NCBI GenBank assembly: GCA_034509925.1
Contig: JAVTLF010000018.1
Span: forward strand, 42,001 to 106,000
Direction: 5' to 3'
Length of the DNA stretch: 64,000 nucleotides
From: Hirudinaria manillensis
Lineage: Eukaryota; Annelida; Clitellata; Hirudinida; Hirudinidae
The position numbers and the translations under genes are program-made. Positions 1-64,000 of the stretch are shown one piece after another; positions within the stretch are counted from its first letter, which is position 1, and each line of letters starts with the position of its first letter. Below the pieces are notes generated by a model, which was not told the DNA's origin, did not search any database, and saw only the letters and a list, made by a program, of their open reading frames with translations.

Positions 1-330
1 AAATCACAATTCATTCGATATAAAAGATTATCTTCTAAGAATGAATACTTCCTTAAAACCTCTAATGAGCTTATCCACAAACAAATTTCGCTGGGTTACA
101 ATCGCCAAACTATGAGAAAAATTCTCAGAGAAGTAGCGAATGCTTCGGATGATCGTCCAAGTAAAAATAAAGATAAGAAAATCTTACCTTTTGTAATTCC
201 TTTTGGTGAAACCTCGAGGAAGGCAGTAAACAGCGTTAGAAGAGTTCTCTCTGAAGATGAGTTCTTCAGAAACTTCACGATCGTCTCAGCCTTCGAAAAA
301 GGAAGTAATCTCCTCTCGAAATTCTTCTAA
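1..330 (+). pseudogene. Module A, reverse transcriptase C-terminal remnant (U0, left-truncated)
   Basis: The frame is open from base 1 to a TAA at 328-330. It starts in the KSQFIRYKRL motif and runs through the LPFVIPFG and SAFEKGSNLL blocks described for 7539-8084. Here the Asp-Asp pair before FF reads Asp-Glu, and the stop is TAA where other units have TGA. Past the stop, another frame reads NEWTLDDILSIHPDDAKPL and ends at TGA, so a single frameshift probably separates two parts of one former C-terminus. Confidence 0.55.
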
Positions 331-1501
331 ACGAATGGACTCTAGATGATATTCTGAGCATCCATCCCGATGATGCTAAACCTCTTGCAGCCTGTAACGA
401 ATGAAAATCATAATTGATTTTTAAACAAAAGTAATTTTTGGAACACATGGTGAGCATAATAATTATAAGAATTATTATCTTTTGTACACTAATACCAGCT
501 AAATAATACTTCTGAGATTTCCAATAAGAGATTTCTTATTGAAAAAATGCTGAATCATGCTAACCAAAAAAAACTTTTTGGTGGTTGTATCAATTCACAT
601 CTCATTCGATATTAAGATTATCTTAAAAAGATTATCTTGGTTGACTGAATACTCCTCTTATATATTCCACTAAGTTACAATCACTATGCCCGGGACGATC
701 GTCAAGGCATTTTTTTGAATATAAGAAATTCTTACCATTCATAACTCCCTTCGATAAACCATGAGGATAATTGATATCCGATGATTTGTCTCCTATGGCG
801 GAATTCGTCGGGAACCTCAACGTCATATTATCGTTAGATATACAAGGAACGATAATTGGAACGGATCACTCGAGGACGCGTAACTTTGTTGAATCTACAA
901 GGATAAAACAAAAGAATTTATTTTTAAAAATTAATTTTTTAAGAATAAATTTTTGTATAATAAATTTTTGAAAAATAATTTTCAATAAATTTGGAGTATA
1001 TTATGACAATAATTATCTTTTCTGAGATTTCCAATAAGAGATTTCTTATTGAAAAAATGCTGAATCATGCTAACCAATAAAAGTGGTTGTATCAATTCAC
1101 ATCTCATTCGATATAAAGATTATCTTAAAAAGATTTTCTTGGTCGACTGAATACTCCCCTTATATACTCCACTAAGTTACAATCACTATGCCTGTGACGA
1201 TCGTCAAGACATTTTTTTTCGAATATAAGAAATTCTTACCATTCATAACTCTCTTCGATTAACCAGGAGGATAATTGATGATTTGTCTCCTATGACGGAA
1301 TTCGTCGGGAACCTCAACGTCATATTATCGTTAGATATACCAAGAACGATAATTGGAACGGATCATTCGAGGCCGCGTAACTTTGAGGAATCTATTAGAA
1401 TAAAACAAAAGAATTTATTTTTAAAATTTAATTTTTTAAGAATAAATTTCTGTATTTTTGAAAAATTAATTTTCAAAAAATTTGGAGTATATTATGACAA
1501 T

Positions 1502-2081
1502 AATTATCTTTTGGATGTAACGGGTTTCCGTGAACTTGATAATTCTTGATACGAATACATTTCTTAATAAAGAAGGAGATTAATTAGAGATTTCTTTCCT
1601 TATAAAAAATGCTGAATCATGCCACCCAAAATTATATGTTTGGGTATCCAGCTATCTCAGAAATCAATAGTTTCATTAGATCACCTTCTAAGAATGAATA
1701 TTACTTAGAAAATTCTATTGAACTTATCGACAAAGATATTTCGCCACTGTACAATCACCTAACTTTGAGAAGTATTCTCATAGAAATTACAAATGCTTCT
1801 GACGATCGTCTAAGTAGTATTTTAAAGTCTTACCCGTTATAGTTCCTTTGGGTAAAAACCACTGGGAACGACAGGAGACAACAACAGAAGATAGCATCAG
1901 GAATGTTCACCCCAGGGATGAACTCTTCAGGAACCTCACCGTCATCTTGGCGTTCGAAAAAGGAAGTTACTTCTGTCCGAAGGAACGTAGCCATCTTACC
2001 GCCTAGTTCTAGGCCAAGGATGCATTACACAATGACTGGCCTGAACTCGATGTAATGAGTCACGCCTGCATAACTAATTAA
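1502..2081 (+). pseudogene. Module D, frameshifted RT remnant (U0)
   Basis: Copy of the remnant detailed at 5371-5950. The first open stretch (1609-1842) ends in TAG, and the LPVIVPLG block continues in another frame. Confidence 0.5.
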
Positions 2082-2189
2082 CTAGTTCCTAGGACACCAC
2101 CTCCCCTCTAGAGGAGAGAGAAGCTAGCCAGCATGAACACTTCAAAGGACAGGGGAAGCAGTGCTCCCACCGCCGCTCAGGAGTCTCCT

Positions 2190-2256
2190 ATTGGTCAACA
2201 CTGGACCTTCCTCGGCTATATAAGGACAATATTTTCCGCTTTTCGATCTTTACGTT
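2190..2256 (+). promoter_or_regulatory. Pol II-type promoter, U0
   Basis: ATTGG (inverted CCAAT box) at 2190-2194 and TATATAAG at 2217-2224. The donor-like GTGAGT follows at 2303. Confidence 0.6.
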
Positions 2257-3515
2257 TTTCGCTTATTCGCTCACCTTAGAGGGCAGAACTGCCGAGGGCC
2301 TAGTGAGTTTAATCGTATTAACGGTATTTTGCCTTGTATTTTGTCTGTTGAAGTATTCGTATTTTTGTCGCTTGATAATCCTAAGATATTTCTTAGTGGT
2401 TATCAGTGTTTTGTTCAAAACACACGTGCTTGCTTCTATTTTGCTTCGATACCATTTTATGCGTTGCAATTTAATGGTATTTCTTAGCGTAATTTTTTAA
2501 TTGCTTTTTTCACTTTTGTTCTTAAATTCTTTTTTATCGTGAAATACGCTTTAGAATTTTGTAGAACTTTTATATAATATATAATATATATTATATATTT
2601 CGGTATAGCTTTGATACTTGTAATGCGAAGCATTTCCTGGTATTTTTTAGCATTTTAATATACCTCGCTCGTCATTCTCAAAAATCTTTAACGTTAAATA
2701 CGTTTTTAGATTTTTTTTGAAAAACGCACGTTATAAACTATTTTATTTTAATTTATTGTATTTTTGGTTTTTAAAAAATTTTTTTTGGGTTCCCAATAAT
2801 TTTTTTACCAAATAAATAACCTTTTTCTTTGGTTTCTTCAAGGGCTGAGATTTCATCTCTTGTTGTTACACTAATTTATCGTTCATTGATGAATTCGTTG
2901 TAAAACTACTAAGTTAATTTAATTGCATCTTTGGTTTTAATTTTTGGGTTCCCAATAATTTTTTTACCAAATAAACAACTTATTTCTGTGGTTTTTCCAA
3001 GGGCTGAGATTTCATCTCTTGTTGTTACACTAATTTATCGTTCATTGATGAATTCGTGGTAAAACTACTAAGTTAATTTGTTGTTTTGGGCGATGATTTA
3101 TCATCCCTTATTAATCTAATAGTTTTTTTAAAAAAAACGTGCTTCGACGGGTAATTATTTATTAAGTGAATTTGCAATCGGTTTCGTTATTTTCTCCTTA
3201 GGTTCTTTCTACGATAAACACGTTTTAAGAATTTTTTGAGAACATACGACTCTCGAATACTACTTTAATTCCAAGCTTGCTTAGCAATTCTTGGCGTTGT
3301 AGTTAAACATTCTGTCCATATCTGGCTCTTATTTTTATGGGTTCCCATTAACTTTAATGCCAGTTTATATCATCAATTGCCGATATATTGTCTCTTGATG
3401 CATTGTTAATTTAGTTAGACTTATATTGTGTGTTTTTGACGACCACGATACATAATTTGCTAGATTGTCTACTAACAAAGAAAGTGGAAGTGCAGTTTTA
3501 TTTATATTTTCTATT

Positions 3516-3529
3516 CTAACCCTAACCCT
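3516..3529 (+). repeat. Telomere-repeat scrap at unit junction
   Basis: CTAACCCTAACCCT is 2.3 copies of CCCTAA. It directly follows the unit end TTTTCTATT and precedes GCCTAATACC of the next unit. The identical 14 bases occur at 7385, 11267, 15129, 18996, 23646, 25892, 28140, 34263, 38131, 42001, 45871, 49740, 53607, 57476 and 61344. At 23646 and 25892 the scrap is followed by a truncated unit instead of GCCTAATACC. Confidence 0.97.
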
Positions 3530-3551
3530 GCCTAATACCATCTTTGTTATT

Positions 3552-3553
3552 AG
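3552..3553 (+). promoter_or_regulatory. Candidate 3' splice acceptor (U1)
   Basis: TTTGTTATTAG ends here, 15 bases before the ATG at 3569. CTAAC and CTAAT, both matching branch-point consensus, lie 20-35 bases upstream, partly inside the telomere scrap. The matching donor would be GTGAGT at 2303 in the preceding unit. Judged from consensus only. Confidence 0.3.
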
Positions 3554-3568
3554 ATTTATCTACAAAAA

Positions 3569-10008: not shown

Positions 10009-11420
10009 TTTCGCTTATTCGCTCACCTTAGAGGGCAGAACTGCCGAGGGCCTAGTGAGTTTAATCGTATTAACGGTATTTTGCCTTGTATTTTGTCTGT
10101 TGAAGTATTCGTATTTTTGTCGCTTGATAATCCTAAGATATTTCTTAGTGGTTATCAGTGTTTTGTTCAAAACACACGTGCTTGCTTCTATTTTGCTTCG
10201 ATACCATTTTATGCGTTGCAATTTAATGGTATTTCTTAGCGTAATTTTTTAATTGCTTTTTTCACTTTTGTTCTTAAATTCTTTTTTATCGTGAAATACG
10301 CTTTAGAATTTTGTAGAACTTTTATATAATATATAATATATATTATATATTTCGGTATAGCTTTGATACTTGTAATGCGAAGCATTTCCTGGTATTTTTT
10401 AGCATTTTAATATACCTCGCTCGTCATTCTCAAAAATCTTTAACGTTAAATACGTTTTTAGATTTTTTTGAAAAACGCACGTTATAAACTATTTTATTTT
10501 AATTTATTGTATTTTTGGTTTTTAAAAAATTTTTTTTGGGTTCCCAATAATTTTTTTACCAAATAAATAACCTTTTTCTTTGGTTTCTTCAAGGGCTGAG
10601 ATTTCATCTCTTGTTGTTACACTAATTTATCGTTCATTGATGAATTCGTTGTAAAACTACTAAGTTAATTTAATTGCATCTTTGGTTTTAATTTTTGGGT
10701 TCCCAATAATTTTTTTACCAAATAAACAACTTATTTCTGTGGTTTTTCCAAGGGCTGAGATTTCATCTCTTGTTGTTACACTAATTTATCGTTCATTGAT
10801 GAATTCGTGGTAAAACTACTAAGTTAATTTGTTGTTTTGGGCGATGATTTATCATCCCTTATTAATCTAATAGTTTTTTTAAAAAAAACGTGCTTCGACG
10901 GGTAATTATTTATTAAGTGAATTTGCAATCGGTTTCGTTATTTTCTCCTTAGGTTCTTTCTACGATAAACACGTTTTAAGAATTTTTTGAGAACATACGA
11001 CTCTCGAATACTACTTTAATTCCAAGCTTGCTTAGCAATTCTTGGCGTTGTAGTTAAACATTCTGTCCATATCTGGCTCTTATTTTTATGGGTTCCCATT
11101 AACTTTAATGCCAGTTTATATCATCAATTGCCGATATATTGTCTCTTGATGCATTGTTAATTTAGTTAGACTTATATTGTGTGTTTTTGACGACCACGAT
11201 ACATAATTTGCTAGATTGTCTACTAACAAAGAAAGTGGAAGTGCAGTTTTATTTATATTTTCTATTCTAACCCTAACCCTGCCTAATACCATCTTTGTTA
11301 TTAGATTTATCTACAAAAAATGAATCGTGGCAATGAAAGAGGGAACTTGAAGGGTCAACCAATGACCAGAGATGTGGGTACAAGGAAGTATTTCCCTTAC
11401 AAGGGACGTACCAATGGTAA

Positions 11421-11966
11421 AGCAGTGCCGCAAAGGAGGAGACCAGATCTGGTCCAACCTCCTACTGTTGCGGCTTCTGCCAAGGCGATAAAAACGCAAT
11501 CAATTTTCTGGATGTAACGGTATTCCGCGAACCAGATAACTCCATTGGTACAAAGGTGTTTTTTAAGGAGACTAACAATAGACTTCTTTTAAACCCGGAC
11601 TCATGCCACCCAAAACATACTTTTGGTGGTATTGTTAAATCACAATTCATTCGATATAAAAGATTATCTTCTAAGAATGAATACTTCCTTAAAACCTCTA
11701 ATGAGCTTATCCACAAACAAATTTCGCTGGGTTACAATCGCCAAACTATGAGAAAAATTCTCAGAGAAGTAGCGAATGCTTCGGATGATCGTCCAAGTAA
11801 AAATAAAGATAAGAAAATCTTACCTTTTGTAATTCCTTTTGGTGAAACCTCGAGGAAGGCAGTAAACAGCGTTAGAAGAGTTCTCTCTGAAGATGATTTC
11901 TTCAGAAACTTCACGATCGTCTCAGCCTTCGAAAAAGGAAGTAATCTCCTCTCGAAATTCTTCTGA
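11421..11966 (+). pseudogene. Module A, RT remnant (U3)
   Basis: 181-codon frame intact to TGA, same residues as the U2 copy. Confidence 0.6.
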
Positions 11967-13120
11967 ACGAATGGACTCTTGATGATATTCTGGACATCCA
12001 TCTCGATGATGCTAAACCTCTTGTAGCCTGTACCGAATGAAAATCATAATTGATTTTTAAGAAAAGGAATTATTTGTACACATGGTGAGCAGAATAATTA
12101 TAAAAATTATCTTTTGTACGCTAATATCAACTAAATAACACTTCTGAGATTTCCAATAAGAGATTTCTTATTGAAAAAATGCTGAATCATGCTAAACCAA
12201 TAAAAGTGGTTGTATCAATTCACATCTCATTCGATATAAAGATTATCTTAAAAAGATTTTCTTTGTCGACTGAATACTCCCCTTATATACTCCACTAAGT
12301 TACAATCACTATGCCTGTGACGATCGTCAAGACATTTTTTTCGAATATAAGAAATTCTTACCATTCATAACTCTCTTCGATAAACCAGGAGGATAATTGA
12401 TGATTTGTCTCCTATGACGGAATTCGTCGGGAACCTCAACGTCATATTATCGTTAGATATACAAAGAACGATAATTGGAACGGATCATTCGAGACCGCGT
12501 AACTTTGAGGAATCTACAAGGATAAAACAAAAGAATTTATTTTTAAAAATTAATTTTTTAAGAATAAATTTTTGTATAATAAATTTTTGAAAAATAATTT
12601 TCAATAAATTTGGAGTATATTATGACAATAATTATCTTTTCTGAGATTTCCAATAAGAGATTTCTTATTGAAAAAATGCTGAATCATGCTAACCAATAAA
12701 AGTGGTTGTATCAATTCACATCTCATTCGATATAAAGATTATCTTAAAAAGATTTTCTTGGTCGACTGAATACTCCCCTTATATACTCCACTAAGTTACA
12801 ATCACTATGCCTGTGACGATCGTCAAGACATTTTTTTTCGAATATAAGAAATTCTTACCATTCATAACTCTCTTCGATTAACCAGGAGGATAATTGATGA
12901 TTTGTCTCCTATGACGGAATTCGTCGGGAACCTCAACGTCATATTATCGTTAGATATACCAAGAACGATAATTGGAACGGATCATTCGAGGCCGCGTAAC
13001 TTTGAGGAATCTATTAGAATAAAACAAAAGAATTTATTTTTAAAATTTAATTTTTTAAGAATAAATTTCTGTATTTTTGAAAAATTAATTTTCAAAAAAT
13101 TTGGAGTATATTATGACAAT

Positions 13121-13700
13121 AATTATCTTTTGGATGTAACGGGTTTCCGTGAACTTGATAATTCTTGATACGAATACATTTCTTAATAAAGAAGGAGATT
13201 AATTAGAGATTTCTTTCCTTATAAAAAATGCTGAATCATGCCACCCAAAATTATATGTTTGGGTATCCAGCTATCTCAGAAATCAATAGTTTCATTAGAT
13301 CACCTTCTAAGAATGAATATTACTTAGAAAATTCTATTGAACTTATCGACAAAGATATTTCGCCACTGTACAATCACCTAACTTTGAGAAGTATTCTCAT
13401 AGAAATTACAAATGCTTCTGACGATCGTCTAAGTAGTATTTTAAAGTCTTACCCGTTATAGTTCCTTTGGGTAAAAACCACTGGGAACGACAGGAGACAA
13501 CAACAGAAGATAGCATCAGGAATGTTCACCCCAGGGATGAACTCTTCAGGAACCTCACCGTCATCTTGGCGTTCGAAAAAGGAAGTTACTTCTGTCCGAA
13601 GGAACGTAGCCATCTTACCGCCTAGTTCTAGGCCAAGGATGCATTACACAATGACTGGCCTGAACTCGATGTAATGAGTCACGCCTGCATAACTAATTAA
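13121..13700 (+). pseudogene. Module D, RT remnant (U3)
   Basis: First open stretch 13228-13461, then frameshifted. Confidence 0.5.
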
Positions 13701-13808
13701 CTAGTTCCTAGGACACCACCTCCCCTCTAGAGGAGAGAGAAGCTAGCCAGCATGAACACTTCAAAGGACAGGGGAAGCAGTGCTCCCACCGCCGCTCAGG
13801 AGTCTCCT

Positions 13809-13875
13809 ATTGGTCAACACTGGACCTTCCTCGGCTATATAAGGACAATATTTTCCGCTTTTCGATCTTTACGTT
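13809..13875 (+). promoter_or_regulatory. Promoter, U3
   Basis: ATTGG 13809-13813, TATATAAG 13836-13843, GTGAGT donor-like 13922. Confidence 0.6.
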
Positions 13876-15282
13876 TTTCGCTTATTCGCTCACCTTAGAG
13901 GGCAGAACTGCCGAGGGCCTAGTGAGTTTAATCGTATTAACGGTATTTTGCCTTGTATTTTGTCTGTTGAAGTATTCGTATTTTTGTCGCTTGATAATCC
14001 TAAGATATTTCTTAGTGGTTATCAGTGTTTTGTTCAAAACACACGTGCTTGCTTCTATTTTGCTTCGATACCATTTTATGCGTTGCAATTTAATGGTATT
14101 TCTTAGCGTAATTTTTTAATTGCTTTTTTCACTTTTGTTCTTAAATTCTTTTTTATCGTGAAATACGCTTTAGAATTTTGTAGAACTTTTATATAATATA
14201 TAATATATATTATATATTTCGGTATAGCTTTGATACTTGTAATGCGAAGCATTTCCTGGTATTTTTTAGCATTTTAATATACCTCGCTCGTCATTCTCAA
14301 AAATCTTTAACGTTAAATACGTTTTTAGATTTTTTTGAAAAACGCACGTTATAAACTATTTTATTTTAATTTATTGTATTTTTGGTTTTTAAAAAATTTT
14401 TTTTGGGTTCCCAATAATTTTTTTACCAAATAAATAACCTTTTTCTTTGGTTTCTTCAAGGGCTGAGATTTCATCTCTTGTTGTTACACTAATTTATCGT
14501 TCATTGATGAATTCGTTGTAAAACTACTAAGTTAATTTAATTGCATCTTTGGTTTTAATTTTTGGGTTCCCAATAATTTTTTTACCAAATAAACAACTTA
14601 TTTCTGTGGTTTTTCCAAGGGCTGAGATTTCATCTCTTGTTGTTACACTAATTTATCGTTCATTGATGAATTCGTGGTAAAACTACTAAGTTAATTTGTT
14701 GTTTTGGGCGATGATTTATCATCCCTTATTAATCTAATAGTTTTTTTAAAAAAAACGTGCTTCGACGGGTAATTATTTATTAAGTGAATTTGCAATCGGT
14801 TTCGTTATTTTCTCCTTCTTTCTACGATAAACACGTTTTAAGAATTTTTTGAGAACATACGACTCTCGAATACTACTTTAATTCCAAGCTTGCTTAGCAA
14901 TTCTTGGCGTTGTAGTTAAACATTCTGTCCATATCTGGCTCTTATTTTTATGGGTTCCCATTAACTTTAATGCCAGTTTATATCATCAATTGCCGATATA
15001 TTGTCTCTTGATGCATTGTTAATTTAGTTAGACTTATATTGTGTGTTTTTGACGACCACGATACATAATTTGCTAGATTGTCTACTAACAAAGAAAGTGG
15101 AAGTGCAGTTTTATTTATATTTTCTATTCTAACCCTAACCCTGCCTAATACCATCTTTGTTATTAGATTTATCTACAAAAAATGAATCGTGGCAATGAAA
15201 GAGGGAACTTGAAGGGTCAACCAATGACCAGAGATGTGGGTACAAGGAAGTATTTCCCTTACAAGGGACGTACCAATGGTAA

Positions 15283-21877: not shown

Positions 21878-23443
21878 TTTTTATCGTGAAATACGCTTTA
21901 GAATTTTGTAGAACTTTTATATAATATATAATATATATTATATATTTCGGTATAGCTTTGATACTTGTAATGCGAAGCATTTCCTGGTATTTTTTAGCAT
22001 TTTAATATACCTCGCTCGTCATTCTCAAAAATCTTTAACGTTAAATACGTTTTTAGATTTTTTTTGAAAAACGCACGTTATAAACTATTTTATTTTAATT
22101 TATTGTATTTTTGGTTTTTAAAAAATTTTTTTTGGGTTCCCAATAATTTTTTTACCAAATAAATAACCTTTTTCTTTGGTTTCTTCAAGGGCTGAGATTT
22201 CATCTCTTGTTGTTACACTAATTTATCGTTCATTGATGAATTCGTTGTAAAACTACTAAGTTAATTTAATTGCATCTTTGGTTTTAATTTTTGGGTTCCC
22301 AATAATTTTTTTACCAAATAAACAACTTATTTCTGTGGTTTTTCCAAGGGCTGAGATTTCATCTCTTGTTGTTACACTAATTTATCGTTCATTGATGAAT
22401 TCGTGGTAAAACTACTAAGTTAATTTGTTGTTTTGGGCGATGATTTATCATCCCTTATTAATCTAATAGTTTTTTTAAAAAAAACGTGCTTCGACGGGTA
22501 ATTATTTATTAAGTGAATTTGCAATCGGTTTCGTTATTTTCTCCTTAGGTTCTTTCTACGATAAACACGTTTTAAGAATTTTTTGAGAACATACGACTCT
22601 CGAATACTACTTTAATTCCAAGCTTGCTTAGCAATTCTTGGCGTTGTAGTTAAACATTCTTTTTTATCGTGAAATACGCTTTAGAATTTTGTAGAACTTT
22701 TATATAATATATAATATATATTATATATTTCGGTATAGCTTTGATACTTGTAATGCGAAGCATTTCCTGGTATTTTTTAGCATTTTAATATACCTCGCTC
22801 GTCATTCTCAAAAATCTTTAACGTTAAATACGTTTTTAGATTTTTTTTGAAAAACGCACGTTATAAACTATTTTATTTTAATTTATTGTATTTTTGGTTT
22901 TTAAAAAATTTTTTTTGGGTTCCCAATAATTTTTTTACCAAATAAATAACCTTTTTCTTTGGTTTCTTCAAGGGCTGAGATTTCATCTCTTGTTGTTACA
23001 CTAATTTATCGTTCATTGATGAATTCGTTGTAAAACTACTAAGTTAATTTAATTGCATCTTTGGTTTTAATTTTTGGGTTCCCAATAATTTTTTTACCAA
23101 ATAAACAACTTATTTCTGTGGTTTTTCCAAGGGCTGAGATTTCATCTCTTGTTGTTACACTAATTTATCGTTCATTGATGAATTCGTGGTAAAACTACTA
23201 AGTTAATTTGTTGTTTTGGGCGATGATTTATCATCCCTTATTAATCTAATAGTTTTTTTAAAAAAAACGTGCTTCGACGGGTAATTATTTATTAAGTGAA
23301 TTTGCAATCGGTTTCGTTATTTTCTCCTTAGGTTCTTTCTACGATAAACACGTTTTAAGAATTTTTTGAGAACATACGACTCTCGAATACTACTTTAATT
23401 CCAAGCTTGCTTAGCAATTCTTGGCGTTGTAGTTAAACATTCT
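21878..23443 (+). repeat. 783-base tandem duplication in the U5 tail
   Basis: Copy 1 is 21878-22660 and copy 2 is 22661-23443. The junction joins GTAGTTAAACATTCT to TTTTTATCGTG. The five bases ATTCT occur at both parental ends (21873-21877 and 22656-22660), so the breakpoint shows 5-base microhomology. No telomere repeat lies at the junction, unlike every unit boundary. Confidence 0.95.
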
Positions 23444-23877
23444 GTCCATATCTGGCTCTTATTTTTATGGGTTCCCATTAACTTTAATGCCAGTTTATAT
23501 CATCAATTGCCGATATATTGTCTCTTGATGCATTGTTAATTTAGTTAGACTTATATTGTGTGTTTTTGACGACCACGATACATAATTTGCTAGATTGTCT
23601 ACTAACAAAGAAAGTGGAAGTGCAGTTTTATTTATATTTTCTATTCTAACCCTAACCCTTGTCTCCTATGACGGAATTCGTCGGGAACCTCAACGTCATA
23701 TTATCGTTAGATATACCAAGAACGATAATTGGAACGGATCATTCGAGGCCGCGTAACTTTGAGGAATCTATTAGAATAAAACAAAAGAATTTATTTTTAA
23801 AATTTAATTTTTTAAGAATAAATTTCTGTATTTTTGAAAAATTAATTTTCAAAAAATTTGGAGTATATTATGACAAT

Positions 23878-24457
23878 AATTATCTTTTGGATGTAACGGG
23901 TTTCCGTGAACTTGATAATTCTTGATACGAATACATTTCTTAATAAAGAAGGAGATTAATTAGAGATTTCTTTCCTTATAAAAAATGCTGAATCATGCCA
24001 CCCAAAATTATATGTTTGGGTATCCAGCTATCTCAGAAATCAATAGTTTCATTAGATCACCTTCTAAGAATGAATATTACTTAGAAAATTCTATTGAACT
24101 TATCGACAAAGATATTTCGCCACTGTACAATCACCTAACTTTGAGAAGTATTCTCATAGAAATTACAAATGCTTCTGACGATCGTCTAAGTAGTATTTTA
24201 AAGTCTTACCCGTTATAGTTCCTTTGGGTAAAAACCACTGGGAACGACAGGAGACAACAACAGAAGATAGCATCAGGAATGTTCACCCCAGGGATGAACT
24301 CTTCAGGAACCTCACCGTCATCTTGGCGTTCGAAAAAGGAAGTTACTTCTGTCCGAAGGAACGTAGCCATCTTACCGCCTAGTTCTAGGCCAAGGATGCA
24401 TTACACAATGACTGGCCTGAACTCGATGTAATGAGTCACGCCTGCATAACTAATTAA
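23878..24457 (+). pseudogene. Module D, RT remnant (T1)
   Basis: First open stretch 23985-24218, then frameshifted. Confidence 0.5.
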
Positions 24458-24565
24458 CTAGTTCCTAGGACACCACCTCCCCTCTAGAGGAGAGAGAAGC
24501 TAGCCAGCATGAACACTTCAAAGGACAGGGGAAGCAGTGCTCCCACCGCCGCTCAGGAGTCTCCT

Positions 24566-24632
24566 ATTGGTCAACACTGGACCTTCCTCGGCTATATAAG
24601 GACAATATTTTCCGCTTTTCGATCTTTACGTT
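24566..24632 (+). promoter_or_regulatory. Promoter, T1
   Basis: ATTGG 24566-24570, TATATAAG 24593-24600, GTGAGT donor-like 24679. Downstream lies truncated T2, which has no acceptor or ATG like that at 3552-3569. Confidence 0.6.
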
Positions 24633-26123
24633 TTTCGCTTATTCGCTCACCTTAGAGGGCAGAACTGCCGAGGGCCTAGTGAGTTTAATCGTATTAACGG
24701 TATTTTGCCTTGTATTTTGTCTGTTGAAGTATTCGTATTTTTGTCGCTTGATAATCCTAAGATATTTCTTAGTGGTTATCAGTGTTTTGTTCAAAACACA
24801 CGTGCTTGCTTCTATTTTGCTTCGATACCATTTTATGCGTTGCAATTTAATGGTATTTCTTAGCGTAATTTTTTAATTGCTTTTTTCACTTTTGTTCTTA
24901 AATTCTTTTTTATCGTGAAATACGCTTTAGAATTTTGTAGAACTTTTATATAATATATAATATATATTATATATTTCGGTATAGCTTTGATACTTGTAAT
25001 GCGAAGCATTTCCTGGTATTTTTTAGCATTTTAATATACCTCGCTCGTCATTCTCAAAAATCTTTAACGTTAAATACGTTTTTAGATTTTTTTTGAAAAA
25101 CGCACGTTATAAACTATTTTATTTTAATTTATTGTATTTTTGGTTTTTAAAAAATTTTTTTTGGGTTCCCAATAATTTTTTTACCAAATAAATAACCTTT
25201 TTCTTTGGTTTCTTCAAGGGCTGAGATTTCATCTCTTGTTGTTACACTAATTTATCGTTCATTGATGAATTCGTTGTAAAACTACTAAGTTAATTTAATT
25301 GCATCTTTGGTTTTAATTTTTGGGTTCCCAATAATTTTTTTACCAAATAAACAACTTATTTCTGTGGTTTTTCCAAGGGCTGAGATTTCATCTCTTGTTG
25401 TTACACTAATTTATCGTTCATTGATGAATTCGTGGTAAAACTACTAAGTTAATTTGTTGTTTTGGGCGATGATTTATCATCCCTTATTAATCTAATAGTT
25501 TTTTTAAAAAAAACGTGCTTCGACGGGTAATTATTTATTAAGTGAATTTGCAATCGGTTTCGTTATTTTCTCCTTAGGTTCTTTCTACGATAAACACGTT
25601 TTAAGAATTTTTTGAGAACATACGACTCTCGAATACTACTTTAATTCCAAGCTTGCTTAGCAATTCTTGGCGTTGTAGTTAAACATTCTGTCCATATCTG
25701 GCTCTTATTTTTATGGGTTCCCATTAACTTTAATGCCAGTTTATATCATCAATTGCCGATATATTGTCTCTTGATGCATTGTTAATTTAGTTAGACTTAT
25801 ATTGTGTGTTTTTGACGACCACGATACATAATTTGCTAGATTGTCTACTAACAAAGAAAGTGGAAGTGCAGTTTTATTTATATTTTCTATTCTAACCCTA
25901 ACCCTTGTCTCCTATGACGGAATTCGTCGGGAACCTCAACGTCATATTATCGTTAGATATACCAAGAACGATAATTGGAACGGATCATTCGAGGCCGCGT
26001 AACTTTGAGGAATCTATTAGAATAAAACAAAAGAATTTATTTTTAAAATTTAATTTTTTAAGAATAAATTTCTGTATTTTTGAAAAATTAATTTTCAAAA
26101 AATTTGGAGTATATTATGACAAT

Positions 26124-26703
26124 AATTATCTTTTGGATGTAACGGGTTTCCGTGAACTTGATAATTCTTGATACGAATACATTTCTTAATAAAGAAGGAG
26201 ATTAATTAGAGATTTCTTTCCTTATAAAAAATGCTGAATCATGCCACCCAAAATTATATGTTTGGGTATCCAGCTATCTCAGAAATCAATAGTTTCATTA
26301 GATCACCTTCTAAGAATGAATATTACTTAGAAAATTCTATTGAACTTATCGACAAAGATATTTCGCCACTGTACAATCACCTAACTTTGAGAAGTATTCT
26401 CATAGAAATTACAAATGCTTCTGACGATCGTCTAAGTAGTATTTTAAAGTCTTACCCGTTATAGTTCCTTTGGGTAAAAACCACTGGGAACGACAGGAGA
26501 CAACAACAGAAGATAGCATCAGGAATGTTCACCCCAGGGATGAACTCTTCAGGAACCTCACCGTCATCTTGGCGTTCGAAAAAGGAAGTTACTTCTGTCC
26601 GAAGGAACGTAGCCATCTTACCGCCTAGTTCTAGGCCAAGGATGCATTACACAATGACTGGCCTGAACTCGATGTAATGAGTCACGCCTGCATAACTAAT
26701 TAA
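26124..26703 (+). pseudogene. Module D, RT remnant (T2)
   Basis: First open stretch 26231-26464, then frameshifted. Confidence 0.5.
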
Positions 26704-26811
26704 CTAGTTCCTAGGACACCACCTCCCCTCTAGAGGAGAGAGAAGCTAGCCAGCATGAACACTTCAAAGGACAGGGGAAGCAGTGCTCCCACCGCCGCTC
26801 AGGAGTCTCCT

Positions 26812-26878
26812 ATTGGTCAACACTGGACCTTCCTCGGCTATATAAGGACAATATTTTCCGCTTTTCGATCTTTACGTT
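26812..26878 (+). promoter_or_regulatory. Promoter, T2
   Basis: ATTGG 26812-26816, TATATAAG 26839-26846, GTGAGT donor-like 26925. Confidence 0.6.
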
Positions 26879-28293
26879 TTTCGCTTATTCGCTCACCTTA
26901 GAGGGCAGAACTGCCGAGGGCCTAGTGAGTTTAATCGTATTAACGGTATTTTGCCTTGTATTTTGTCTGTTGAAGTATTCGTATTTTTGTCGCTTGATAA
27001 TCCTAAGATATTTCTTAGTGGTTATCAGTGTTTTGTTCAAAACACACGTGCTTGCTTCTATTTTGCTTCGATACCATTTTATGCGTTGCAATTTAATGGT
27101 ATTTCTTAGCGTAATTTTTTAATTGCTTTTTTCACTTTTGTTCTTAAATTCTTTTTTATCGTGAAATACGCTTTAGAATTTTGTAGAACTTTTATATAAT
27201 ATATAATATATATTATATATTTCGGTATAGCTTTGATACTTGTAATGCGAAGCATTTCCTGGTATTTTTTAGCATTTTAATATACCTCGCTCGTCATTCT
27301 CAAAAATCTTTAACGTTAAATACGTTTTTAGATTTTTTTTGAAAAACGCACGTTATAAACTATTTTATTTTAATTTATTGTATTTTTGGTTTTTAAAAAA
27401 TTTTTTTTGGGTTCCCAATAATTTTTTTTTACCAAATAAATAACCTTTTTCTTTGGTTTCTTCAAGGGCTGAGATTTCATCTCTTGTTGTTACACTAATT
27501 TATCGTTCATTGATGAATTCGTTGTAAAACTACTAAGTTAATTTAATTGCATCTTTGGTTTTAATTTTTGGGTTCCCAATAATTTTTTTACCAAATAAAC
27601 AACTTATTTCTGTGGTTTTTCCAAGGGCTGAGATTTCATCTCTTGTTGTTACACTAATTTATCGTTCATTGATGAATTCGTGGTAAAACTACTAAGTTAA
27701 TTTGTTGTTTTGGGCGATGATTTATCATCCCTTATTAATCTAATAGTTTTTTTAAAAAAAACGTGCTTCGACGGGTAATTATTTATTAAGTGAATTTGCA
27801 ATCGGTTTCGTTATTTTCTCCTTAGGTTCTTTCTACGATAAACACGTTTTAAGAATTTTTTGAGAACATACGACTCTCGAATACTACTTTAATTCCAAGC
27901 TTGCTTAGCAATTCTTGGCGTTGTAGTTAAACATTCTGTCCATATCTGGCTCTTATTTTTATGGGTTCCCATTAACTTTAATGCCAGTTTATATCATCAA
28001 TTGCCGATATATTGTCTCTTGATGCATTGTTAATTTAGTTAGACTTATATTGTGTGTTTTTGACGACCACGATACATAATTTGCTAGATTGTCTACTAAC
28101 AAAGAAAGTGGAAGTGCAGTTTTATTTATATTTTCTATTCTAACCCTAACCCTGCCTAATACCATCTTTGTTATTAGATTTATCTACAAAAAATGAATCG
28201 TGGCAATGAAAGAGGGAACTTGAAGGGTCAACCAATGACCAGAGATGTGGGTACAAGGAAGTATTTCCCTTACAAGGGACGTACCAATGGTAA

Positions 28294-28839
28294 AGCAGTG
28301 CCGCAAAGGAGGAGACCAGATCTGGTCCAACCTCCTACTGTTGCGGCTTCTGCCAAGGCGATAAAAACGCAATCAATTTTCTGGATGTAACGGTATTCCG
28401 CGAACCAGATAACTCCATTGGTACAAAGGTGTTTTTTAAGGAGACTAACAATAGACTTCTTTTAAACCCGGACTCATGCCACCCAAAACATACTTTTGGT
28501 GGTATTGTTAAATCACAATTCATTCGATATAAAAGATTATCTTCTAAGAATGAATACTTCCTTAAAACCTCTAATGAGCTTATCCACAAACAAATTTCGC
28601 TGGGTTACAATCGCCAAACTATGAGAAAAATTCTCAGAGAAGTAGCGAATGCTTCGGATGATCGTCCAAGTAAAAATAAAGATAAGAAAATCTTACCTTT
28701 TGTAATTCCTTTTGGTGAAACCTCGAGGAAGGCAGTAAACAGCGTTAGAAGAGTTCTCTCTGAAGATGATTTCTTCAGAAACTTCACGATCGTCTCAGCC
28801 TTCGAAAAAGGAAGTAATCTCCTCTCGAAATTCTTCTGA
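28294..28839 (+). pseudogene. Module A, RT remnant (U6)
   Basis: 181-codon frame intact to TGA. Confidence 0.6.
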
Positions 28840-32007: not shown

Positions 32008-32396
32008 CTAACCCTAACCCTAACCCTAACCCTAACCCTAACCCTAACCCTAACCCTAACCCTAACCCTAACCCTAACCCCTAACCCTAACCCCTAACCC
32101 TAACCCTAACCCTAACCCTAACCCCTAACCCTAACCCTAACCCTAACCCTAACCCTAACCCTAACCCTAACCCTAACCCTAACCCCTAACCCTAACCCTA
32201 ACCCTAACCCTAACCCTAACCCTAACCCTAACCCTAACCCTAACCCTAACCCTAACCCTAACCCTAACCCTAACCCTAACCCTAACCCTAACCCTAACCC
32301 TAACCCTAACCCTAACCCTAACCCTAACCCTAACCCTAACCCTAACCCTAACCCTAACCCTAACCCTAACCCTAACCCTAACCCTAACCCTAACCC
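32008..32396 (+). repeat. Long interstitial telomere tract, (CCCTAA) about 64 copies
   Basis: A 389-base run of CCCTAA. Four repeats are CCCCTAA (runs of four C at 32078, 32091, 32122 and 32183); the right half is perfect. It begins in the same register as all the short scraps (CTATT then CTAACCC). It ends at AACCC against AGCTATCTCAG of truncated unit T3, sharing CC with the unit's own CCAGCTATC. The near-perfect sequence suggests addition by telomerase and recent burial. Confidence 0.98.
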
Positions 32397-32828
32397 AGCT
32401 ATCTCAGAAATCAATAGTTTCATTAGATCACCTTCTAAGAATGAATATTACTTAGAAAATTCTATTGAACTTATCGACAAAGATATTTCGCCACTGTACA
32501 ATCACCTAACTTTGAGAAGTATTCTCATAGAAATTACAAATGCTTCTGACGATCGTCTAAGTAGTATTTTAAAGTCTTACCCGTTATAGTTCCTTTGGGT
32601 AAAAACCACTGGGAACGACAGGAGACAACAACAGAAGATAGCATCAGGAATGTTCACCCCAGGGATGAACTCTTCAGGAACCTCACCGTCATCTTGGCGT
32701 TCGAAAAAGGAAGTTACTTCTGTCCGAAGGAACGTAGCCATCTTACCGCCTAGTTCTAGGCCAAGGATGCATTACACAATGACTGGCCTGAACTCGATGT
32801 AATGAGTCACGCCTGCATAACTAATTAA
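32397..32828 (+). pseudogene. Module D, RT remnant, 5'-truncated (T3)
   Basis: Lacks the LLDVTGF start and the first 14 codons of the 5478-5711-type open stretch. TAG at 32587-32589, then the usual frameshifted pieces. Confidence 0.5.
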
Positions 32829-32936
32829 CTAGTTCCTAGGACACCACCTCCCCTCTAGAGGAGAGAGAAGCTAGCCAGCATGAACACTTCAAAGGACAGG
32901 GGAAGCAGTGCTCCCACCGCCGCTCAGGAGTCTCCT

Positions 32937-33003
32937 ATTGGTCAACACTGGACCTTCCTCGGCTATATAAGGACAATATTTTCCGCTTTTCGATCTTTAC
33001 GTT
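32937..33003 (+). promoter_or_regulatory. Promoter, T3
   Basis: ATTGG 32937-32941, TATATAAG 32964-32971, GTGAGT donor-like 33050. About 570 bases from the long telomere tract. Confidence 0.6.
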
Positions 33004-34416
33004 TTTCGCTTATTCGCTCACCTTAGAGGGCAGAACTGCCGAGGGCCTAGTGAGTTTAATCGTATTAACGGTATTTTGCCTTGTATTTTGTCTGTTGAAG
33101 TATTCGTATTTTTGTCGCTTGATAATCCTAAGATATTTCTTAGTGGTTATCAGTGTTTTGTTCAAAACACACGTGCTTGCTTCTATTTTGCTTCGATACC
33201 ATTTTATGCGTTGCAATTTAATGGTATTTCTTAGCGTAATTTTTTAATTGCTTTTTTCACTTTTGTTCTTAAATTCTTTTTTATCGTGAAATACGCTTTA
33301 GAATTTTGTAGAACTTTTATATAATATATAATATATATTATATATTTCGGTATAGCTTTGATACTTGTAATGCGAAGCATTTCCTGGTATTTTTTAGCAT
33401 TTTAATATACCTCGCTCGTCATTCTCAAAAATCTTTAACGTTAAATACGTTTTTAGATTTTTTTTGAAAAACGCACGTTATAAACTATTTTATTTTAATT
33501 TATTGTATTTTTGGTTTTTAAAAAATTTTTTTTGGGTTCCCAATAATTTTTTTTACCAAATAAATAACCTTTTTCTTTGGTTTCTTCAAGGGCTGAGATT
33601 TCATCTCTTGTTGTTACACTAATTTATCGTTCATTGATGAATTCGTTGTAAAACTACTAAGTTAATTTAATTGCATCTTTGGTTTTAATTTTTGGGTTCC
33701 CAATAATTTTTTTACCAAATAAACAACTTATTTCTGTGGTTTTTCCAAGGGCTGAGATTTCATCTCTTGTTGTTACACTAATTTATCGTTCATTGATGAA
33801 TTCGTGGTAAAACTACTAAGTTAATTTGTTGTTTTGGGCGATGATTTATCATCCCTTATTAATCTAATAGTTATTTAAAAAAAACGTGCTTCGACGGGTA
33901 ATTATTTATTAAGTGAATTTGCAATCGGTTTCGTTATTTTCTCCTTAGGTTCTTTCTACGATAAACACGTTTTAAGAATTTTTTGAGAACATACGACTCT
34001 CGAATACTACTTTAATTCCAAGCTTGCTTAGCAATTCTTGGCGTTGTAGTTAAACATTCTGTCCATATCTGGCTCTTATTTTTATGGGTTCCCATTAACT
34101 TTAATGCCAGTTTATATCATCAATTGCCGATATATTGTCTCTTGATGCATTGTTAATTTAGTTAGACTTATATTGTGTGTTTTTGACGACCACGATACAT
34201 AATTTGCTAGATTGTCTACTAACAAAGAAAGTGGAAGTGCAGTTTTATTTATATTTTCTATTCTAACCCTAACCCTGCCTAATACCATCTTTGTTATTAG
34301 ATTTATCTACAAAAAATGAATCGTGGCAATGAAAGAGGGAACTTGAAGGGTCAACCAATGACCAGAGATGTGGGTACAAGGAAGTATTTCCCTTACAAGG
34401 GACGTACCAATGGTAA

Positions 34417-59909: not shown

Positions 59910-60017
59910 CTAGTTCCTAGGACACCACCTCCCCTCTAGAGGAGAGAGAAGCTAGCCAGCATGAACACTTCAAAGGACAGGGGAAGCAGTGCTCCCACCG
60001 CCGCTCAGGAGTCTCCT

Positions 60018-60084
60018 ATTGGTCAACACTGGACCTTCCTCGGCTATATAAGGACAATATTTTCCGCTTTTCGATCTTTACGTT
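60018..60084 (+). promoter_or_regulatory. Promoter, U13
   Basis: ATTGG 60018-60022, TATATAAG 60045-60052, GTGAGT donor-like 60131. Confidence 0.6.
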
Positions 60085-61497
60085 TTTCGCTTATTCGCTC
60101 ACCTTAGAGGGCAGAACTGCCGAGGGCCTAGTGAGTTTAATCGTATTAACGGTATTTTGCCTTGTATTTTGTCTGTTGAAGTATTCGTATTTTTGTCGCT
60201 TGATAATCCTAAGATATTTCTTAGTGGTTATCAGTGTTTTGTTCAAAACACACGTGCTTGCTTCTATTTTGCTTCGATACCATTTTATGCGTTGCAATTT
60301 AATGGTATTTCTTAGCGTAATTTTTTAATTGCTTTTTTCACTTTTGTTCTTAAATTCTTTTTTATCGTGAAATACGCTTTAGAATTTTGTAGAACTTTTA
60401 TATAATATATAATATATATTATATATTTCGGTATAGCTTTGATACTTGTAATGCGAAGCATTTCCTGGTATTTTTTAGCATTTTAATATACCTCGCTCGT
60501 CATTCTCAAAAATCTTTAACGTTAAATACGTTTTTAGATTTTTTTTGAAAAACGCACGTTATAAACTATTTTATTTTAATTTATTGTATTTTTGGTTTTT
60601 AAAAAATTTTTTTGGGTTCCCAATAATTTTTTTTACCAAATAAATAACCTTTTTCTTTGGTTTCTTCAAGGGCTGAGATTTCATCTCTTGTTGTTACACT
60701 AATTTATCGTTCATTGATGAATTCGTTGTAAAACTACTAAGTTAATTTAATTGCATCTTTGGTTTTAATTTTTGGGTTCCCAATAATTTTTTTACCAAAT
60801 AAACAACTTATTTCTGTGGTTTTTCCAAGGGCTGAGATTTCATCTCTTGTTGTTACACTAATTTATCGTTCATTGATGAATTCGTGGTAAAACTACTAAG
60901 TTAATTTGTTGTTTTGGGCGATGATTTATCATCCCTTATTAATCTAATAGTTTTTTTAAAAAAAACGTGCTTCGACGGGTAATTATTTATTAAGTGAATT
61001 TGCAATCGGTTTCGTTATTTTCTCCTTAGGTTCTTTCTACGATAAACACGTTTTAAGAATTTTTTGAGAACATACGACTCTCGAATACTACTTTAATTCC
61101 AAGCTTGCTTAGCAATTCTTGGCGTTGTAGTTAAACATTCTGTCCATATCTGGCTCTTATTTTTATGGGTTCCCATTAACTTTAATGCCAGTTTATATCA
61201 TCAATTGCCGATATATTGTCTCTTGATGCATTGTTAATTTAGTTAGACTTATATTGTGTGTTTTTGACGACCACGATACATAATTTGCTAGATTGTCTAC
61301 TAACAAAGAAAGTGGAAGTGCAGTTTTATTTATATTTTCTATTCTAACCCTAACCCTGCCTAATACCATCTTTGTTATTAGATTTATCTACAAAAAATGA
61401 ATCGTGGCAATGAAAGAGGGAACTTGAAGGGTCAACCAATGACCAGAGATGTGGGTACAAGGAAGTATTTCCCTTACAAGGGACGTACCAATGGTAA

Positions 61498-62043: not shown

Positions 62044-63198
62044 ACGAATGGACTCTTGATGATATTCTGGACATCCATCTCGATGATGCTAAACCTCTTG
62101 TAGCCTGTACCGAATGAAAATCATAATTGATTTTTAAGAAAAGGAATTATTTGTACACATGGTGAGCAGAATAATTATAAAAATTATCTTTTGTACGCTA
62201 ATATCAACTAAATAACACTTCTGAGATTTCCAATAAGAGATTTCTTATTGAAAAAATGCTGAATCATGCTAAACCAATAAAAGTGGTTGTATCAATTCAC
62301 ATCTCATTCGATATAAAGATTATCTTAAAAAGATTTTCTTTGTCGACTGAATACTCCCCTTATATACTCCACTAAGTTACAATCACTATGCCTGTGACGA
62401 TCGTCAAGACATTTTTTTCGAATATAAGAAATTCTTACCATTCATAACTCTCTTCGATAAACCAGGAGGATAATTGATGATTTGTCTCCTATGACGGAAT
62501 TCGTCGGGAACCTCAACGTCATATTATCGTTAGATATACAAAGAACGATAATTGGAACGGATCATTCGAGACCGCGTAACTTTGAGGAATCTACAAGGAT
62601 AAAACAAAAGAATTTATTTTTAAAAATTAATTTTTTAAGAATAAATTTTTGTATAATAAATTTTTGAAAAATAATTTTCAATAAATTTGGAGTATATTAT
62701 GACAATAATTATCTTTTCTGAGATTTCCAATAAGAGATTTCTTATTGAAAAAATGCTGAATCATGCTAACCAATAAAAGTGGTTGTATCAATTCACATCT
62801 CATTCGATATAAAGATTATCTTAAAAAGATTTTCTTGGTCGACTGAATACTCCCCTTATATACTCCACTAAGTTACAATCACTATGCCTGTGACGATCGT
62901 CAAGACATTTTTTTTTCGAATATAAGAAATTCTTACCATTCATAACTCTCTTCGATTAACCAGGAGGATAATTGATGATTTGTCTCCTATGACGGAATTC
63001 GTCGGGAACCTCAACGTCATATTATCGTTAGATATACCAAGAACGATAATTGGAACGGATCATTCGAGGCCGCGTAACTTTGAGGAATCTATTAGAATAA
63101 AACAAAAGAATTTATTTTTAAAATTTAATTTTTTAAGAATAAATTTCTGTATTTTTGAAAAATTAATTTTCAAAAAATTTGGAGTATATTATGACAAT

Positions 63199-63778
63199 AA
63201 TTATCTTTTGGATGTAACGGGTTTCCGTGAACTTGATAATTCTTGATACGAATACATTTCTTAATAAAGAAGGAGATTAATTAGAGATTTCTTTCCTTAT
63301 AAAAAATGCTGAATCATGCCACCCAAAATTATATGTTTGGGTATCCAGCTATCTCAGAAATCAATAGTTTCATTAGATCACCTTCTAAGAATGAATATTA
63401 CTTAGAAAATTCTATTGAACTTATCGACAAAGATATTTCGCCACTGTACAATCACCTAACTTTGAGAAGTATTCTCATAGAAATTACAAATGCTTCTGAC
63501 GATCGTCTAAGTAGTATTTTAAAGTCTTACCCGTTATAGTTCCTTTGGGTAAAAACCACTGGGAACGACAGGAGACAACAACAGAAGATAGCATCAGGAA
63601 TGTTCACCCCAGGGATGAACTCTTCAGGAACCTCACCGTCATCTTGGCGTTCGAAAAAGGAAGTTACTTCTGTCCGAAGGAACGTAGCCATCTTACCGCC
63701 TAGTTCTAGGCCAAGGATGCATTACACAATGACTGGCCTGAACTCGATGTAATGAGTCACGCCTGCATAACTAATTAA
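63199..63778 (+). pseudogene. Module D, RT remnant (U14)
   Basis: First open stretch 63306-63539, then frameshifted. Confidence 0.5.
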
Positions 63779-63886
63779 CTAGTTCCTAGGACACCACCTC
63801 CCCTCTAGAGGAGAGAGAAGCTAGCCAGCATGAACACTTCAAAGGACAGGGGAAGCAGTGCTCCCACCGCCGCTCAGGAGTCTCCT

Positions 63887-63953
63887 ATTGGTCAACACTG
63901 GACCTTCCTCGGCTATATAAGGACAATATTTTCCGCTTTTCGATCTTTACGTT
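63887..63953 (+). promoter_or_regulatory. Promoter, U14
   Basis: ATTGG 63887-63891, TATATAAG 63914-63921. Confidence 0.6.
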
Positions 63954-64000
63954 TTTCGCTTATTCGCTCACCTTAGAGGGCAGAACTGCCGAGGGCCTAG

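What the first reader, a model, noticed from the sequence alone, without database searches (positions are those of the whole stretch)
1..64000. Chromosome-end array built from a retroelement derivative interleaved with telomere repeat
Seen: every unit is in the same orientation, has the same 3' end and is separated from the next by CCCTAA repeat; three units are 5'-truncated; each full unit carries reverse transcriptase remnants. Known: endonuclease-deficient Penelope-like elements (Athena, Coprina) attach to telomere ends and carry short reverse-complement telomere repeats at junctions, and HeT-A forms head-to-tail arrays at fly telomeres. Inferred: a non-autonomous relative here forms part of the chromosome end together with telomerase repeats. 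The strand sense agrees: the G-strand 3' end points left, so priming there would copy a + strand RNA from its 3' end, leaving element 5'->3' followed by CCCTAA.
Basis: partly seen in the sequence, partly recalled or inferred. Interest (0 to 1): 0.82.

Follow-up and report, generated by a model that had tools for sequence, protein, structure and literature searches.

The report
Telomere-capping retroelement arrays in a leech
The stretch is a chromosome-end-type array of a crippled retroelement whose complete relatives sit near the ends of several chromosomes of this leech, alternating with ordinary telomere repeat, which suggests that retroelement copying and telomerase build these chromosome ends together.

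Summary
The window is a same-strand array of a 3.87-kb unit: 16 of 17 unit junctions carry two CCCTAA-type repeats, one a 385-bp tract. It is the last 64 kb of an unplaced 106-kb contig in a genome matching the leech Hirudinaria manillensis. The unit is an internal-deletion derivative of a 6.47-kb, two-ORF element with a Penelope/telomerase-like reverse transcriptase and no recognised endonuclease. Of the listed placed copies of three families, 94 of 95 lie within 75 kb of scaffold ends, at 18 of 26 ends, 85 with the 3' end inward (two lists capped). Nine distinct 5' truncations abut telomere tracts. Best reading: an endonuclease-deficient Penelope-like element primes on the telomere 3' end and telomerase re-caps it. 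New here: annelid host, ORF1 and RT joined in frame across a conserved UGA, no hammerhead found, long non-autonomous arrays. Not shown: activity, terminal position of this contig, Penelope membership by phylogeny.

The parts
1..64000 (+). Head-to-tail array of family-1 element units: 12 complete 3.87-kb units (3529-7397, 7398-11279, 11280-15141, 15142-19008, 28153-32020, 34276-38143, 38144-42013, 42014-45883, 45884-49752, 49753-53619, 53620-57488, 57489-61356), one fused unit, three truncated units and two units cut by the window edges
11280..15141 (+). Reference 3.87-kb unit: element positions 1-205 joined to 2804/2808-6473 of the 6473-bp full-length element (2.6 kb deleted at a 4-base CAAG overlap)
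28354..28357 (+). Deletion joint (CAAG) in one unit; removes most of ORF1 and ORF2 up to codon 428; the remaining 5' reading frame stops after 65 codons
   Evidence: the 65 codons were read in the unit at 11280
28429..28839 (+). RT remnant: 136-aa ORF from the C-terminal part of ORF2 (one of 12 such ORFs listed in the window)
32012..32396 (+). CCCTAA telomere tract, 385 bp, 98% canonical hexamers
32395..34275 (+). 5'-truncated unit (element 4590-6473) starting directly at the telomere tract
23659..25904 (+). 5'-truncated unit (element 4225-6473), upstream junction CTAACCCTAACCC only
25905..28152 (+). Second unit with the same truncation point (element 4225-6473), probably a duplicate of 23659-25904
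22656..23658 (+). Partial unit fused inside the previous unit without CCCTAA: internal rearrangement
24593..24599 (+). TATATAA of a TATATAAGGACAA block in the 3' part of the unit (element 5160), also present in the diverged family on C10 and at the C13 right end: candidate promoter firing into the next copy (function inferred)
61348..61356 (+). Example of the constant two-repeat junction (CCCTAACCC) between units

Best explanation
The window is a subtelomeric-type array of a non-autonomous, internally deleted derivative of a telomere-targeted, endonuclease-deficient Penelope-like retroelement of a leech. Inferred cycle: a transcript, probably begun in the 3' part of an upstream copy (TATATAAGG), ends in CUAACCC repeats that pair with the TTAGGG overhang. 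The element's reverse transcriptase, made as an ORF1-RT fusion by reading through a UGA, extends the chromosome's own 3' end with element cDNA. The cDNA often stops early, giving a 5' truncation facing the chromosome tip. Telomerase then adds TTAGGG to that end, and the next element attaches to the new tract. The derivative in the window would use the enzyme in trans. Most of its near-identical tandem units then arose by recombination or by copying of multimeric RNA. Shown: anatomy, end location of placed copies, orientation, truncations joined to tracts, open ORFs, purifying selection, conserved UGA. Inferred: priming, transcription, readthrough, telomerase capping, trans-action.
For: End location and orientation. 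Nine distinct truncation points joined straight to CCCTAA tracts, with slight microhomology (mean 1.44 vs 0.68 expected, p=0.023, 9 junctions). The C11 left end starts with about 1.5 kb of CCCTAA followed by a truncated unit. Two-repeat 3' tail kept in a family about 74% identical in its 3' region. TERT gene present. RT: TIGR04416 E=1e-8 (34.7 bits, far below that model's cut-off of 300), RVT_1 E=1.1e-6 in one of 7 aligned members; palm aligns with leech TERT (31% identity over 94 columns, E 3e-4, probability 39). No endonuclease domain matched in ORF1 or ORF2; the single GIY-YIG match in the genome reads by eye as an SLX1-like host gene. Ten copies with an open 589-codon ORF2; both ORFs open in 3 of 5 full-length copies examined. 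dN/dS 0.14-0.18 in 7 of 8 ORF2 comparisons, the eighth saturated.
Against: The contig of the window is unplaced, so its own terminal position is not shown. 14 of 74 ORF2 matches lie away from ends, including mid-chromosome fragments on C8 and C9. 10 of 95 placed copies point the other way. The full-length 5' end, wherever seen, abuts an upstream copy, never a tract, so a full-length end attachment as such is not seen. The end lists of families 2 and 3 rest on 40 scored candidates of 112 and of 78. Pfam gives no RVT_1 match for the main ORF2 itself, and PDB matches are weak. Penelope membership was judged by motifs recalled from memory, not by a tree.
Confidence: 0.83

Rival explanations
1. Ordinary subtelomeric satellite: an old retroelement fragment that once captured a telomere scrap was amplified by unequal exchange and spread between chromosome ends by recombination, with no recent retrotransposition.
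For: Units in the window are near-identical and share one short junction; identical truncations recur in pairs (el 4225, 3427, 5887); the left end of the contig is a 1.2-kb tandem of the element's interior.
Against: Nine different truncation points each joined to tracts, three families at chromosome ends, open ORFs and ORF2 dN/dS near 0.15. Recombination surely shaped the 3.87-kb array but does not explain these.
Confidence: 0.12
2. Telomere-repeat-specific insertion by an endonuclease (as SART/TRAS are described): elements insert into existing tracts rather than onto bare ends.
For: Gives the same order tract-element-tract; telomere-specific location.
Against: No endonuclease domain recognised in ORF1 or ORF2; variable 5' truncations are common here, whereas SART/TRAS copies at telomeres are described as full-length (PMC4700185, passage).
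Confidence: 0.05
3. Scaffolding or haplotig artefact: the unplaced contig is a collapsed or mis-assembled repeat, so the array length and the 385-bp tract are not real.
For: Contig C18 is a separate 106-kb contig; inverted element pieces at the outermost part of C1, C3, C10 and C14 look like fold-backs.
Against: The same 3.87-kb unit occurs on C11, and tract-joined truncations occur independently on several chromosome-scale scaffolds.
Confidence: 0.05

Closest known systems
Athena elements of bdelloid rotifers (endonuclease-deficient Penelope-like elements)
   Same: RT without endonuclease, copies at chromosome ends, telomere repeats at the 3' junction, 5' ends truncated by telomere repeats (PMC3846280, PMC5537684, PMC6431247: passages). 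Two ORFs and 4-6 kb, as described for this subclass (PMC6431247).
   Different: Host is an annelid with TTAGGG telomeres; no hammerhead ribozyme found near the 3' end; ORF1 and RT lie in one frame across a single conserved UGA, an arrangement I could not check in Athena.
Terminons of Adineta vaga
   Same: 3' end carries short reverse-complement telomere repeats; 5' truncation by telomere repeats; head-to-tail or interspersed arrays (PMC6431247 passage).
   Different: Terminons reach 40 kb, carry accessory genes and a hammerhead next to the telomere repeats; here the full element is 6.47 kb and no hammerhead was found.
Coprina and other fungal, plant and protist endonuclease-deficient PLEs
   Same: Same reported class and telomeric habit (PMC3846280 passage; the name Coprina was seen only in the finding and in a search listing).
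HeT-A/TART/TAHRE of Drosophila
   Same: Head-to-tail, same-sense arrays with 3' end to the centromere; a promoter in the 3' part firing into the neighbour is proposed here by analogy (PMC5537684 passages).
   Different: Non-LTR elements in a telomerase-less host; here TERT and TTAGGG tracts are present.
SART/TRAS of insects, MoTeR of Pyricularia
   Same: Retroelements interleaved with telomerase repeats (PMC10088271 passages).
   Different: SART and TRAS are non-LTR elements with an endonuclease (PMC4700185, PMC5537684 passages). No such domain was recognised here; MoTeR's own domains were not looked up.

Membership tests
Endonuclease-deficient Penelope-like elements | Encodes a reverse transcriptase | tested here: met
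   ORF2 residues 331-441 match TIGR04416 at 1e-8 (34.7 bits, curated cut-off 300); one of 7 aligned members matches RVT_1 at 1.1e-6; palm motifs GDVSSLYTNM and YLRYLDDIF. The main ORF2 alone gave no RVT_1 match.
Endonuclease-deficient Penelope-like elements | RT belongs to the Penelope/telomerase branch | tested here: inconclusive
   hhalign with leech TERT palm: 94 columns, 31% identity, E 3e-4, probability 39. Penelope motifs (ADKG block, HPKHTF...RYKRL thumb) are recalled, not from a call; no PLE reference sequence was available for a tree.
Endonuclease-deficient Penelope-like elements | No GIY-YIG endonuclease in the element | tested here: met
   No endonuclease match in ORF1 or ORF2; the only GIY-YIG hit in the genome reads by eye as an SLX1-like gene.
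Endonuclease-deficient Penelope-like elements | Largely confined to chromosome ends, 3' end next to telomere repeat, same orientation | tested here: met
   28 of 28 placed 3' ends of the window's family and 66 of 67 listed for two others within 75 kb of ends; 85 of 95 in the expected orientation. The lists for the two others are capped, and 14 of 74 ORF2 matches are interior fragments.
Endonuclease-deficient Penelope-like elements | 5' truncations capped by telomere repeats | tested here: met
   el 318, 443, 488, 631, 1098, 3427, 4590, 5447, 5887 (the last lies in an internal repeat, so it could also be 5728), and 1427 in a diverged copy with one extra base.
Athena/Terminon subgroup | Hammerhead ribozyme next to the 3' telomere repeats | tested here: not met
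   No hammerhead among Rfam matches of two stretches holding full-length copies (four hits, all unrelated families far below gathering score); no CTGANGA core on the sense strand in the last 1.7 kb. Not filed as Athena or Terminon.
Athena/Terminon subgroup | Groups with Athena in an RT phylogeny | not testable with these tools
   No Athena sequences in the collections at hand.
SART/TRAS | Non-LTR element with an endonuclease | tested here: not met
   No endonuclease domain recognised.
HeT-A/TART | Non-LTR element replacing telomerase | tested here: not met
   Telomerase gene present and CCCTAA tracts at ends.

The most novel reading that the evidence does not exclude
Leech telomeres are kept up jointly by telomerase and a small set of endonuclease-free retroelements whose RT is made as an ORF1-RT fusion by programmed UGA readthrough. 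The elements attach mainly to short telomeres, so each buried tract (22 measured, 199-752 bp, median 374.5; the one long end tract measured is 1534 bp) is a fossil of germline telomere length at the time of capture.
Probability: 0.25. Interest if true: 0.78.

Novelty: new variant of a known kind. Interest (0 to 1): 0.62.

Why it matters
Endonuclease-free Penelope-like elements are described as close relatives of telomerase (PMC5537684, passage), but the cases named in the passages I saw are rotifers, fungi, plants, protists and one shrimp (PMC3846280). A leech with intact copies, non-autonomous derivatives and standard TTAGGG telomeres would be an accessible animal in which attachment to chromosome ends, trans-use of the enzyme and the division of labour with telomerase could be measured. 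The conserved in-frame UGA would add stop-codon readthrough to the ways such elements make their polymerase.

Tried and rejected
Hammerhead ribozyme at the 3' end: Rfam (only four unrelated chance-level hits) and a core-motif scan, none found. Pfam on two copies of the 136-aa window ORF: no match. PDB search with ORF2 and with alignment A1: only weak group II-type RT matches (best E 0.033 and 0.33). Relatives in IMG/VR and GTDB contigs: none confirmed (7 and 54 pattern matches). Covariation of the stem-loop after the UGA: pairs hold in 95.5% of 44 cells against 29.5-43.2% when slid, but with 4 distinct rows the covariation score is reached by 123 of 500 shuffles and the percentage paired by 269 of 500, so covariation is not significant. 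The folds have z -2.4 to -3.7 over 81-85 nt but -0.9 to -2.4 over 124 nt. ORF1 constraint is less clear than ORF2: dN/dS 0.30-0.34 for the stretch just before the UGA, and 0.05 with near-saturated dS for codons 78-178. Leech telomere papers: the rows listed by searches (15 of 40; 10 of 10) were not on leech telomeres. Selenocysteine at the UGA and CUG initiation were considered; neither can be excluded. The junction overlap test paired labels and values wrongly in its last step; rerun with values read off its table, same mean, p 0.023 instead of 0.021.
Full report
What is in the window. The 64 kb consist of one repeated unit, on the + strand throughout. A reference unit (11280-15141, 3862 bp) was compared with the whole window; of 11 other complete units, 10 are 99.7-99.85% identical to it and one is 98.8%. 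Seventeen unit 3' ends are present; 16 are followed by the next unit after only two repeats (CTAACCCTAACCC) and one by a 385-bp CCCTAA tract at 32012-32396. 58 exact CCCTAACCCTAA matches were found, all in this tract, where shuffles give 0. Units with truncated 5' ends begin at 23659 and 25905 (same point) and at 32395; a further short unit at 22656 is fused within its neighbour without any telomere repeat.

Where it lies. The window is bases 42001-106000 of contig C18 (106,000 bp) of a genome of 148,429,096 bases in 23 contigs; C18 is not part of a chromosome-scale scaffold. The organism is most likely the leech Hirudinaria manillensis: four hirudin-family matches on C4, three over the family cut-off; a mitochondrial contig whose COX1 fits the invertebrate code, judged by eye since several codes keep the frame open; and a published assembly of 148.59 Mb with 22 scaffolds, 13 of them 14.76-8.30 Mb (PMC10671345, passage), against 14.7556 Mb for C1 and 8.3038 Mb for C13 here.

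The complete element. Near the ends of C5, C7 and C9 the unit is 6.47 kb. The window unit equals its positions 1-205 joined to 2804/2808-6473, with CAAG shared at the joint. The full element holds ORF1 (492 codons from the first ATG), one TGA, and in the same frame ORF2 (589 codons) with RT motifs. Ten genomic copies have an open 589-codon ORF2. Of five full-length copies examined, ORF1 and ORF2 are both open in three; a copy cut at 488 also has an open ORF2. ORF2 matches an RT model at 1e-8, though at 34.7 bits against a cut-off of 300 (TIGR04416), and one of 7 aligned members matches RVT_1 at 1.1e-6; the main ORF2 alone gives no Pfam RT match. Its palm aligns with the leech telomerase palm (31% over 94 columns, E 3e-4, probability 39). 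No endonuclease domain was matched in either ORF, and the one GIY-YIG match in the genome reads by eye as an SLX1-like gene. In the window unit only codons 429-589 of ORF2 remain, and the 5' frame ends after 65 codons, so it is non-autonomous.

Chromosome-end habit. The 43-base 3' end of this family occurs 54 times, 28 on chromosome-scale scaffolds and 26 on C14 and C18. A diverged second family (about 74% identical in the 3' region) and a third family whose one 7.1-kb unit examined has no ORF of 90 codons or more outside simple-sequence stretches were followed by their 3' ends; those searches scored only 40 of 112 and 40 of 78 candidates, so copies elsewhere could have been missed. Within 75 kb of scaffold ends lie 28 of 28, 34 of 34 and 32 of 33 placed copies listed; 75 kb at 26 ends is 1.3% of the placed genome. 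Of the same 28, 34 and 33 copies, 26, 28 and 31 have the 3' end facing inward, and 18 of 26 ends carry at least one family. Against this, 14 of 74 ORF2 protein matches lie elsewhere, among them diverged fragments without telomere repeat in the fetched 3.0 and 7.5 kb in the middle of C8 and C9; telomere-like stretches also occur inside C1; and 10 of 95 placed copies are inverted, partly in outermost stretches that may be fold-back artefacts.

Truncations and tracts. In the fetched ends and the window, copies of the main family cut at el 318, 443, 488, 631, 1098, 3427 (twice), 4590 (the window), 5447 and 5887 (twice; 5728 is equally possible because of an internal repeat) begin directly at CCCTAA repeat. 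A diverged copy on C2 is cut at 1427 with one extra base, and one copy at 4666 has a few filler bases. At nine distinct junctions the overlap with telomere repeat averages 1.44 bases against 0.68 for random cuts (p=0.023; two duplicates and the filler junction left out). The 22 tracts measured other than the C11 end tract are 199-752 bp, median 374.5, and the tract at the left end of C11 is 1534 bp, neighbouring pieces up to 40 bases apart being merged. On C1 a third-family 3' end is followed by tracts holding very short pieces of the same 3' end (by eye). Full-length 5' ends (TGCCTAATACC), wherever seen, directly follow the two-repeat end of another copy. This fits transcripts that begin in the upstream copy, where a TATATAAGGACAA block is shared with the second family on C10 and with the right end of C13 (local score 51 against a best of 33 in 30 shuffles). 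That starting point is inferred.

ORF1-UGA-RT. CGG TGA CTG joins the two frames in 12 of 12 fetched main-family copies that hold the site (selected by an identical 16-base word just upstream) and in three diverged copy groups, one copy of each shown, despite length changes in multiples of three around it. The first methionine of ORF2 is codon 100, yet codons 3-98 show dN/dS 0.15-0.18 in three comparisons, like the rest of ORF2 (0.14-0.18; one more distant comparison was saturated). ORF1 just before the UGA is less constrained, 0.30-0.34 over 29-49 codons. Translation across the UGA, or starting at the CUG, is therefore likely. A helix begins about 14-17 bases after the UGA in each of the four copies folded (z -2.4 to -3.7 over 81-85 nt; weaker, -0.9 to -2.4, over 124 nt in three); covariation is too thin to count.

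Mechanism. The order telomere - truncated 5' end - element - 3' end with two repeats - older telomere tract is what priming on the G-rich 3' end followed by telomerase capping would leave, as described for endonuclease-deficient Penelope-like elements (PMC3846280, PMC6431247, PMC5537684; passages). A telomerase gene is present as one open frame of at least 1028 codons; its best matches among solved structures are telomerase reverse transcriptases at 2e-109 (that these entries are human is recalled). The long runs of near-identical 3.87-kb units need recombination or multimer copying in addition.

Comparison and novelty. It works like Athena-type elements and meets the features tested except the hammerhead ribozyme, which was not found. 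RT phylogeny could not be tested, so I file it as a probable endonuclease-deficient Penelope-like element, not as Athena. Among the rows shown by searches (20 of 32; 15 of 40; 1 of 1; 6 of 6; 7 of 7; 10 of 10; 15 of 137) of the held open-access papers I saw no title or abstract start reporting such elements at leech or other annelid telomeres, and search 76 for Penelope-like elements with stop codon readthrough gave 0 papers. The three leech genome papers looked into contain neither 'telomer' nor 'Penelope' in the main text. The founding 2007 paper and the 2017 Terminon paper were not held, and subscription journals and repeat libraries such as Repbase were not searched.

Noticed in passing
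L034 (C9:5170501-5178000): Mid-chromosome tandem of about 1.41-kb units made from ORF1/ORF2 fragments of a diverged relative; a possible centromeric or interstitial satellite derived from the telomeric element.
   Followed up: partly
C18:1-11522 (L023, L024): The left end of the window's contig is a tandem of about 1.2-kb units from the element's interior (el 3416-4639), a satellite born within the element.
   Followed up: partly
L064 (C5:20481-27640): Third telomeric family, about 7.1 kb, no ORF of 90 codons or more outside simple-sequence stretches, with ATACCATC near its 5' end and a GAGGGCCTAGTG block as in the main element; its 3' ends recur at about 7.26-kb spacing on contig C19.
   Followed up: partly
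L062 (C1:2801-3400): Very short third-family 3' pieces embedded in CCCTAA tracts, possible extreme cases of 5' truncation.
   Followed up: no
L057 and L058 (C13 left end, C4 right end): A further shared sequence (around CAACCGGT...GAGTCATCC) meets telomere repeat at two chromosome ends: possibly a fourth telomere-attached family.
   Followed up: no
C9:3026446-3027786 (L030): A COX1 match with the same score as the mitochondrial contig C23: a recent nuclear mitochondrial insertion or an assembly error.
   Followed up: no
L029 (C10:6446931): The leech telomerase gene is a single open frame of at least 1028 codons, i.e. apparently without introns over that stretch.
   Followed up: partly
C1:7197156-7197239: Interstitial TTAGGG stretch in the middle of a chromosome, a possible old fusion or repair site.
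   Followed up: no
L019/L020 (C10:5001-12783), L026 (C1 right end), L028 (C14), L046 (C3 left end): Element pieces in inverted orientation at the outermost parts of several ends; may be fold-back assembly artefacts or real inverted ends.
   Followed up: no
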